Source of the DNA: Bacteroidales bacterium
GTDB taxonomy: Bacteria > Bacteroidota > Bacteroidia > Bacteroidales > GCA-2711565
Direction: 5' to 3'
Length of the DNA stretch: 8,557 bases
NCBI GenBank assembly: GCA_029938505.1
Contig: JAOZUV010000068.1
Span: forward strand, 1-8,557
The position numbers were made by a program, and so were the translations under genes. The notes below the pieces were generated by a model. The model was not told the origin of the DNA. It saw only the letters and a program-made list of their open reading frames with translations, and did no database searches. Shown piece by piece: positions 4,313 to 5,723 of this stretch (position 1 is the stretch's first letter; each line of letters begins with the position of its first letter).

Positions 4313-4408
4313 ATGAGAAAGAAAGAAAGAAAGAAAGAAAGAAAGAAAGAATTATTTGAAAATTGGAATTCTGTTATTTGGGATTTCAATATTGCTATGG
4401 AATTGTAA
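4313..4408 (+). other. Out-of-register start ORF running through the GAAA tract into the lipoprotein gene
   Basis: The ATG at 4313 is the nearest upstream ATG to the lipoprotein and has an A/T-rich leader. In the present register it encodes 31 residues (MRKKERKKERKKE, then unrelated sequence) and stops at TAA 4406-4408. The distance from this ATG to the TTG at 4356 is 43 bases, one more than a multiple of three. Removing one GAAA unit makes it 39 and joins this start to the lipoprotein frame. It is interpreted as the true start of the M23 lipoprotein gene in an OFF register. Confidence 0.5.
4317..4351. repeat. GAAA tetranucleotide microsatellite, 8 full units plus GAA
   Basis: Uninterrupted GAAA units run from 4317 to 4348 and are followed by GAA (4349-4351). 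A 35-base perfect tetranucleotide tract is rare in bacterial DNA by chance and is a known substrate for slipped-strand mispairing. It lies between an ATG (4313) and the lipoprotein signal peptide, where a change of unit number changes the reading frame. Confidence 0.95.
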
Positions 4409-5723
4409 AAAGGAAGAAAAATTAGTAAAAGACGAAACTGGCATTCCTGAACTATTACAACTTAATTTTAATTCCAAGGATTTCAAAAAAACGATACCTT
4501 ATGAGTATGTTGTTGATTGGACTAATCCTCAAAAACATTATTCTGAAGAATTAAAATTATCCTATTATGAATTTCCAATAAACTATTTAACGCCTTTAAA
4601 CCCCAATACATTGAATAAACAAAAAGGGGCAGGAAATTATTACATTAAATTTAAAATTATTGCCACTGAAAACAATGATAATGAGTATAGCTATTATGCT
4701 GTCAAATTTTATCAAGATGTTGATTTATTGGATAATGAATTAATTAATTCGAAAGTTAATTTTAATGATACTAAAAATTTTACCGGTACAATTAATCTTT
4801 TTGATAAAGAAGGAGATTTGGGTTTTGCAAAAAAACTTAAAAATGGTTGTTTAAAAGAAGGAAAAGTATATTATTATAATGAGTTTGCATCATCATTAAA
4901 AACAGTATCGAATGATTGCTATACCATTACTGTCCATCATTATACAGATTGGTATAAATATTATCCTGATTTAGGTATTTACATTTTTGATGGAGTATCA
5001 TATGATGGGAGCACATCTGAAACCTTTTGCGAGGACTCAGGAGGAGCCTATCCGGATTTACCTGAGGATTATTTAGAGGTTGCTGTTGGGTCTGGTACAT
5101 ACACTGATACTAGCAATGATACTACTTTAGTTGAAATAGATGAACTTGTGGAGTTACCTTGTCCGGGAGATCCTATAATTAATGTGGAACTTGCACCACA
5201 ACTAGGTTCTTCAGGAATTAGTGGGGGAATGTTTGGATGTACAAGATATGGTGGTACTGACTGTACTAGTGCTGATGGTAGAAACAAAAAGCATAGAGGT
5301 ATTGATTTAAAAAATCCGTATGGTTCTCCTATTTATGCCATGTATGATGGAACTATATATTCTGCCAAACATGATCCAGAAGGGGGAGGGTATTTTACTA
5401 GAATTCAAAGCACCGTTAATGGGGAGGTTATTTTGACTGAATATCACCATTTACAAGAAGGCAATAGAGTTGAAGAAAACACTGATGGTACTTTAAGATA
5501 CGTTAGTGCAGGTGATATTATTGGATACCAAGGGGAATCCGGCAATTTAAAGGATGCTATAGCACGTGGAGATTGTGAGTCGCATTTACATATAGGTGTA
5601 TTGCTTCATGATGGAACAAATGCGTGGAGTTTTGATAATTATGATTTTGTTAATGCTAGAGATTATTTAAACACATATATCAGAGATGATGGAATAACCT
5701 TATTAAATGACTGTAATAACTAA
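4356..5723 (+). CDS. Lipoprotein with C-terminal M23 (LytM-like) metallopeptidase domain, probably phase-variable
   Basis: Read from TTG 4356 this is 455 residues; the frame has no ATG upstream before a TGA at 4314. The N-terminus (KIGILLFGISILLWNC) is a lipoprotein signal with Cys17, followed by KKEEK, similar to the Lys/acidic surface-export signal known for Bacteroidota lipoproteins. Residues about 23-210 are an unassigned, probably beta-rich domain. Residues about 210-285 are a Ser/Thr/Asp-rich linker with Cys that may form disulfides. Residues about 289-440 are an M23 peptidase domain with all expected motifs: HRGID (ligands H313, D317), YHHL (H365), GYQGESGN, and HLH (H410 general base, H412 ligand). 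M23 enzymes are zinc endopeptidases that usually cut peptidoglycan cross-links, so a surface or periplasmic wall hydrolase, possibly an antagonistic effector, is inferred. With one GAAA unit fewer, translation from ATG 4313 would add MRKKERKKERKNY and give a better signal peptide. The 170-residue gene follows after 14 bp. Confidence 0.85.
   Translation: MKIGILLFGISILLWNCKKEEKLVKDETGIPELLQLNFNSKDFKKTIPYEYVVDWTNPQKHYSEELKLSYYEFPINYLTPLNPNTLNKQKGAGNYYIKFKIIATENNDNEYSYYAVKFYQDVDLLDNELINSKVNFNDTKNFTGTINLFDKEGDLGFAKKLKNGCLKEGKVYYYNEFASSLKTVSNDCYTITVHHYTDWYKYYPDLGIYIFDGVSYDGSTSETFCEDSGGAYPDLPEDYLEVAVGSGTYTDTSNDTTLVEIDELVELPCPGDPIINVELAPQLGSSGISGGMFGCTRYGGTDCTSADGRNKKHRGIDLKNPYGSPIYAMYDGTIYSAKHDPEGGGYFTRIQSTVNGEVILTEYHHLQEGNRVEENTDGTLRYVSAGDIIGYQGESGNLKDAIARGDCESHLHIGVLLHDGTNAWSFDNYDFVNARDYLNTYIRDDGITLLNDCNN

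What the first reader, a model, noticed from the sequence alone, without database searches (positions are those of the whole stretch)
4313..4410. GAAA repeat tract positioned to switch a surface M23 lipoprotein on and off (phase-variable contingency locus)
Seen directly: ATG 4313, then a 35-base GAAA tract, then a lipoprotein signal peptide whose own frame has no ATG and only a TTG at 4356. ATG to TTG is 43 bases, so the frames differ by one. Loss of one unit (39 bases) or gain of two (51 bases) gives MRKKERKKERKNY followed by LKIGILLFGISILLWNC, a well-formed lipoprotein signal with a basic n-region partly encoded by the repeat itself. In the present state the ATG frame stops at 4406. Tetranucleotide tracts inside the 5' coding end are the classic phase-variation design in Haemophilus and Neisseria; I know of much less of this in Bacteroidota, where DNA inversion is the usual mechanism. 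Alternatives: TTG is the real start and the GA-rich tract acts as a leader or ribosome site whose length tunes expression, or the unit number in this sequence is an assembly error.
Basis: partly seen in the sequence, partly recalled or inferred. Interest (0 to 1): 0.88.

Follow-up and report, generated by a model that had tools for sequence, protein, structure and literature searches.

The report
Repeat-switched bacterial surface toxin gene
A stuttering four-letter DNA repeat sits inside the start of what looks like a gene for a cell-wall-cutting weapon against rival bacteria, placed so that gaining or losing a repeat unit would turn the weapon on or off by chance.

Summary
In detail: an uninterrupted 36-nt AGAA tract (9 units, 4316-4351) lies between ATG 4313 and a lipoprotein signal peptide in another frame; the ATG frame stops at 4406. 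(1) The codons before the TTG are conserved signal-peptide sequence (Lys-Asn-Tyr at that place in 8 of 34 relatives), so TTG is very probably an internal leucine and the assembled allele is out of frame. (2) The gene looks like a polymorphic-toxin lipoprotein: its N-terminal half occurs with unrelated C-termini, and a small exported, immunity-like gene follows 14 nt downstream, as behind 13 of 14 related M23 loci. (3) Leaders of related toxins carry repeats in one genus (4 of 11 starts there, 0 of 12 elsewhere; 0 of 55 neighbour genes). Best reading: a slipped-strand ON/OFF switch on an interbacterial cell-wall hydrolase. Length variation, killing and immunity could not be measured: the contig is the only one of this organism seen, and its genome is not held. 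The literature searches made showed no earlier report.

The parts
4313..4315 (+). ATG, probable natural start codon
   Evidence: sequence; conserved coding upstream of the TTG
4316..4351 (+). perfect AGAA tract, 9 units, 36 nt; would encode the basic n-region of the signal peptide
4313..4408 (+). frame opened by the ATG in the assembled allele: 31 residues, then stop
4347..4406 (+). conserved lipoprotein signal peptide (from Lys-Asn-Tyr to the lipobox Cys) in the other frame
4356..5723 (+). lipoprotein frame as listed from TTG (455 codons): N-terminal module, flexible linker, M23 domain
5289..5603 (+). Peptidase_M23 domain (residues 312-416), HxxxD 313 and HxH 410 present
5738..6250 (+). 170-residue small exported protein, candidate immunity gene, 14 nt after the toxin stop

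Best explanation
The tract is a translational contingency switch on a polymorphic-toxin-like lipoprotein. Translation starts at ATG 4313 and the tract itself encodes the basic n-region of the signal peptide. Slippage at the AGAA units changes the frame, so about one tract length in three gives the full lipoprotein and the others give a short dead-end peptide. When ON, the protein would be exported, lipidated and displayed on the outer membrane, and its C-terminal M23 domain would cut the peptidoglycan of neighbours; the small exported protein encoded 14 nt downstream would protect kin. The assembled allele is OFF. Shown: tract, frames, conserved signal peptide reaching across the TTG, M23 domain with catalytic motifs, C-terminal swapping among relatives, conserved downstream gene. 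Inferred: slippage in vivo, surface display, delivery, killing, immunity.
For: Tract and frames. Residue at the TTG position is Leu in 18 of 38 relatives and Met in none; Lys-Asn-Tyr before it in 8 of 34 relatives, a match reached by 3 of 14,014 window triplets, the site included. M23 domain 47.4 bits, cut-off 28.7, motifs present. N-terminal half on three proteins with other C-termini and on L027. Small exported gene behind 13 of 14 related M23 loci. Orphan M23 cassette with further small genes in L029/L035. Second, unrelated lipoprotein gene with a tetranucleotide tract in its signal peptide, also out of frame (L036). Repeats in leaders of 4 of 23 related starts against 0 of 55 neighbours.
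Against: No read, isolate or second contig shows another unit number (1 contig). No related toxin start among the 23 scanned has a tract inside the coding frame, and the leader tracts occur in one genus only (4 of 11 there, 0 of 12 elsewhere). Leader tract lengths in three species hardly differ (28, 28, 26 nt). The candidate immunity gene has no recognised promoter of its own, so switching OFF might also disarm immunity. Toxicity and immunity untested; L026 has the M23 gene without a neighbouring small gene.
Confidence: 0.6

Rival explanations
1. TTG 4356 is the real start; the GA-rich tract is only leader sequence whose length may tune expression.
For: The TTG frame is open for 455 codons and would give a short but possible signal peptide with one Lys.
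Against: 18 of 38 relatives have Leu and none has Met at that position, and the residues before it are conserved; 37 of 42 anchored relatives have at least 20 residues to the Cys, against 17 from the TTG.
Confidence: 0.1
2. The tract length is fixed, or its unit number is an assembly or sequencing error, and the gene is always in frame in the cell.
For: A single contig of unknown read support; repeats can be miscounted.
Against: A 36-nt run is shorter than usual short reads (general knowledge, not tested here); a second out-of-frame tract of this kind exists in L036.
Confidence: 0.13
3. The switch is real but the lipoprotein is a cell-wall remodelling or feeding enzyme rather than a toxin, and the small downstream gene is its inhibitor or partner.
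For: Some M23 proteins act in wall growth (ShyA, DipM and EnvC are among the fold neighbours); toxicity is untested.
Against: C-terminal swapping on a shared N-terminal module, an orphan M23 cassette and repeated small exported genes fit polymorphic toxins.
Confidence: 0.15
4. The gene is a decaying pseudogene that happens to have lost its frame at a slippery site.
For: Out of frame as assembled.
Against: 455 downstream codons are open, catalytic motifs are kept and the neighbouring candidate immunity gene is intact.
Confidence: 0.05

Closest known systems
Tetranucleotide contingency loci of Haemophilus influenzae (PMC2651432, passages read)
   Same: Tetranucleotide tract in the 5' end of the reading frame just after the start; unit changes shift the frame and stop translation early.
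   Different: Another phylum; the gene looks like an interbacterial toxin; the tract codes the signal-peptide n-region; length variation not shown here.
SitA lipoprotein polymorphic toxins of myxobacteria (PMC5562445, abstract and passages read)
   Same: Lipoprotein, variable C-terminal domain, immunity gene directly downstream.
   Different: M23 domain here; no sitB-like gene was looked for; delivery route unknown; no repeat switch appears in the passages seen (0 hits for 'phase vari').
Maf polymorphic toxins of Neisseria (PMC4287609, passages read)
   Same: Toxin plus immunity module with spare C-terminal cassettes.
   Different: MafB itself is secreted and the lipoprotein is a separate protein, MafA; the paper's hits for phase variation concern capsule and reference titles.
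M23 / LytM-lysostaphin endopeptidases (Pfam PF01551)
   Same: Domain match above cut-off, HxxxD and HxH motifs, LytM, lysostaphin and EnpA among structural neighbours.
   Different: Carried on a lipoprotein with a swappable N-terminal module and a candidate immunity gene.

Membership tests
Simple-sequence-repeat contingency locus | perfect tandem tract long enough to slip | tested here: met
   36 nt, 9 units, no interruption
Simple-sequence-repeat contingency locus | unit changes alter the reading frame of a gene | tested here: met
   unit length 4, tract between ATG and the conserved frame
Simple-sequence-repeat contingency locus | length varies among cells or isolates | not testable with these tools
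   one contig, no reads, genome not held
Simple-sequence-repeat contingency locus | expression switches with length | not testable with these tools
   needs a reporter or proteomics
Polymorphic toxin system | shared N-terminal module with different C-terminal domains | tested here: met
   P0024, P0034, P0042, L027; second module in the genus of G013
Polymorphic toxin system | small immunity-like gene directly downstream | tested here: met
   13 of 14 M23 loci by position; homology clear for 7 database relatives, weak for the most distant (22-31%)
Polymorphic toxin system | toxicity neutralised by the cognate protein | not testable with these tools
   bench test needed
SitA | lipoprotein signal on the toxin | tested here: met
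   conserved lipobox Cys
SitA | SitA N-terminal domain and outer-membrane-exchange delivery | not tested
   no SitA sequence was compared
Peptidase M23 | family profile and zinc/catalytic motifs | tested here: met
   47.4 bits, cut-off 28.7; HxxxD 313, HxH 410

The most novel reading that the evidence does not exclude
Some Bacteroidota polymorphic lipoprotein toxins are under repeat-driven contingency control, through the signal-peptide frame in the window and through leader tracts in relatives, so that a clonal population makes its contact weapon in only a random fraction of cells. This would be stochastic, heritable weapon bet-hedging in a phylum where phase variation is best known as DNA inversion.
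Probability: 0.38. Interest if true: 0.82.

Novelty: new variant of a known kind. Interest (0 to 1): 0.7.

Why it matters
Contingency loci are mostly discussed for host-facing surface structures of pathogens. In a 2025 phase-variation review (PMC11868660; term counts and 12 of 28 passages seen) 'toxin' and 'flavobacter' have no hits, and every Bacteroides passage shown that names a mechanism concerns inversion or an invertase. A repeat switch on an interbacterial weapon would suggest that bacteria hedge the cost of being armed, and would make weapon heterogeneity within a clone countable from ordinary sequencing reads.

Tried and rejected
Promoter: TAnnTTTG and TTTG-N17-23-TAnnTT are no commoner than chance in the window (13 found, 14.8 expected; 9 found, 14.4 expected). 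None lies on the + strand between 3402 and 5738, so neither gene's promoter is assigned.

Phage origin: no match to the toxin among 50,697 phage records.

Host identity: succinyl-CoA ligase is 66-71% identical in the 13 genomes tried, all brought in by toxin or tract hits. The phylum search used a cut-off that was too strict and returned nothing, so it shows nothing. The host's family is left open.

Length variation in relatives: of 5 genomes of the G091 genus only G091 itself has the L036 gene; of 38 genomes of the G002 genus only G002 matched. Neither test could show variation.

Leader tracts: L090 and L091 share a leader and a chromosomal site, and the L092 leader is related, so the 3 of 3 are not independent. 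Tract lengths are 28, 28 and 26 nt. The control columns are uninformative, because the reversed pattern is the same tract. G817's lipoprotein did not match the L030 toxin at 1e-15; only its leader and signal peptide are shared. The octamer of G819's leader also occurs at a second place in that genome.

Leader comparison: 23 starts used. Window, L090 and L036 were left out because a tract brought them to notice; L082 and L086 because I had no clear start; L098-L101 were printed but not used; duplicates of one place were counted once. The 55 controls come from all loci, not only from the one genus with tracts. Thresholds were set after seeing the data.

Signal-peptide anchoring was automatic: of 51 proteins 42 were anchored and 9 rejected; some anchored rows are at the wrong Cys (e.g. 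L027, L028, L034, P0005, P0040) or are not lipoproteins (P0008). P0010 and P0030 begin inside the hydrophobic core; their DNA was not fetched, so frame disruption there is untested.

Literature: 8 searches. None of the listed titles or abstract starts describes a repeat-switched polymorphic toxin or a lipoprotein polymorphic toxin of Bacteroidota; only open-licence PMC papers are covered and lists were capped. The polymorphic-toxin survey PMC3482391 has one main-text hit for 'lipoprotein' and none for 'M23', 'phase variation' or 'flavobacteri' in the part held.

Full report
OBSERVATION. The window holds ATG 4313, then a perfect AGAA run at 4316-4351 (36 nt, 9.0 units), then TTG 4356, which opens a 455-codon lipoprotein frame. 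The frames differ: the ATG frame makes 31 residues and stops at 4406-4408. In the lipoprotein frame a TGA at 4314-4316 precludes any start upstream of the tract. The run scores 72 in the tandem-repeat scan; the two other arrays score 31 and 32.

IS TTG THE START? Anchoring relatives at the lipobox Cys shows a conserved signal peptide, roughly K-N-Y-L-K-x-G-I-L-L-F-G-I-S-L-L-L-W-N-C. At the TTG position 18 of 38 relatives have Leu and none has Met. The three codons before TTG (4347-4355) read Lys-Asn-Tyr; 8 of 34 relatives have exactly KNY there, and only 3 of 14,014 codon triplets from all frames of the window, the site included, score as high. The Lutibacter record L002 begins MRKMRIKNYLKIGILLFG. 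The codons upstream of TTG are therefore very probably coding, the natural start is ATG 4313, and the tract supplies the basic n-region. The allele as assembled is OFF. The anchoring is automatic and some rows are misplaced.

HOW UNUSUAL IS THE TRACT? (GAAA)6 on either strand occurs in 7 of 397 genomes of the G003 family and 5 of 390 of its phylum; the two samples share some genomes. Of the 14 tracts I judged by eye one to lie between an ATG and a lipoprotein frame: L007/L036 in G091. There a TTTC tract forms the hydrophobic core of a lipoprotein signal. ATG to the lipobox Ser-Cys codons is 70 nt, out of frame, and 660 open codons follow, with an HExxH-like motif seen by eye and no Pfam family. 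It is a different gene with the same layout. Two other tracts (L004, L010) fall in short open frames that I did not assess.

WHAT IS THE PROTEIN? It has a Pfam M23 domain (47.4 bits against a cut-off of 28.7) with HxxxD and HxH present; LytM, lysostaphin, EnpA and ShyA are among its fold neighbours. The N-terminal half, searched alone, finds three proteins besides itself, P0024, P0034 and P0042, at 36-48% identity over 86-90%. Their C-termini are not M23 and reach no Pfam cut-off. L027 adds one more at 42%, with an HExxH-like C-terminus by eye. L033 matches residues 7-87 (40%), and its gene is split between two frames as sequenced. In the genus of G013 a second N-terminal module is likewise joined to several C-termini. 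L029/L035 carry an M23 lipoprotein, two small exported genes, an orphan M23 domain without signal peptide, and further small genes. This is the organisation of polymorphic toxins as described in PMC3482391 (abstract start in the listing).

DO RELATED TOXINS CARRY REPEATS? I scanned -200 to +45 of 23 related toxin starts found by protein similarity: 4 have a tract (L077 CTAT x6, L080 TATC x7, L083 TAAATCCC x4, L087 T18), against 0 of 55 neighbouring genes in the same loci (one-sided Fisher P 0.006). The test was designed after seeing the data, L077 and L080 leaders are related, and all four come from one genus: 4 of 11 starts there, 0 of 12 elsewhere. Across that genus, (CTAT)5 occurs in 3 of 23 genomes, one tract each, and all three end 55-78 nt upstream of a lipoprotein of this kind; G817's shares leader and signal peptide with G818's but has a different mature part. 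The octamer is present four times in L083 and about twice, diverged, in L084 at the matching place; a second octamer tract of G819 lies elsewhere. No related toxin start among the 23 has a coding-frame tract like the window's.

MECHANISM. Most likely, slipped-strand mispairing changes the number of AGAA units, and one length in three lets ATG 4313 read into the lipoprotein. The tract is spent in the n-region, where extra charged residues should be tolerated, so several lengths can be functional. ON cells would display a wall hydrolase; OFF cells save its cost. Since the candidate immunity gene is only 14 nt away, and about 1.3 kb of untranslated message would precede it in OFF cells, either immunity has its own promoter (none recognised) or OFF cells are at risk from ON siblings. 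That is a testable prediction. All of this paragraph is inference.

KNOWN AND NEW. In H. influenzae tetranucleotide tracts lie at or just after start codons and switch by frame (PMC2651432, passages). Lipoprotein polymorphic toxins are known from myxobacteria (SitA, PMC5562445, abstract and passages), and that paper calls itself, to its authors' knowledge, the first such case. MafB systems share the cassette organisation (PMC4287609, passages). I saw no report of a repeat-switched polymorphic toxin, nor of this lipoprotein toxin group, in the listings. The parts are known kinds; their combination in these bacteria appears new.

LIMITS. One contig; no reads; host family unresolved. Length variation, translation start, delivery, killing and immunity remain to be measured. 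On re-checking I lowered the probability of the boldest reading slightly (0.40 to 0.38), because the leader tracts are confined to one genus.

Noticed in passing
L036:249-2301 (G091:C25): Second, unrelated lipoprotein gene (660 codons after the Cys, HExxH-like motif by eye) with a TTTC tract inside the signal peptide, out of frame as sequenced; candidate contingency locus.
   Followed up: partly
L090, L091, L092 (G817, G818, G013), around 1498-1526: The only three (CTAT)5 tracts in 23 genomes of a genus lie 55-78 nt upstream of lipoproteins of the toxin kind.
   Followed up: partly
L083 and L084, leader of the toxin-like gene: Octamer repeat in four copies in one species and about two diverged copies at the matching place in another.
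   Followed up: partly
L087, 21-39 nt upstream of the start: Run of 18 T in the leader of an M23 toxin-like gene.
   Followed up: no
L029 and L035 (G286:C2): Array of M23 lipoprotein, small exported genes and an orphan M23 domain.
   Followed up: partly
L033:1429-2983 (G253): Relative with the window's N-terminal module whose gene is split between two frames as sequenced.
   Followed up: no
P0010, P0030: Database relatives whose predicted start lies inside the hydrophobic core of the signal peptide; possible disrupted or unfinished 5' ends.
   Followed up: no
6425-6468: The succinyl-CoA ligase frame more likely starts at ATG 6465 (MNIHEYQ) than at TTG 6459; a TAnnTTTG motif lies at 6425-6432.
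   Followed up: no
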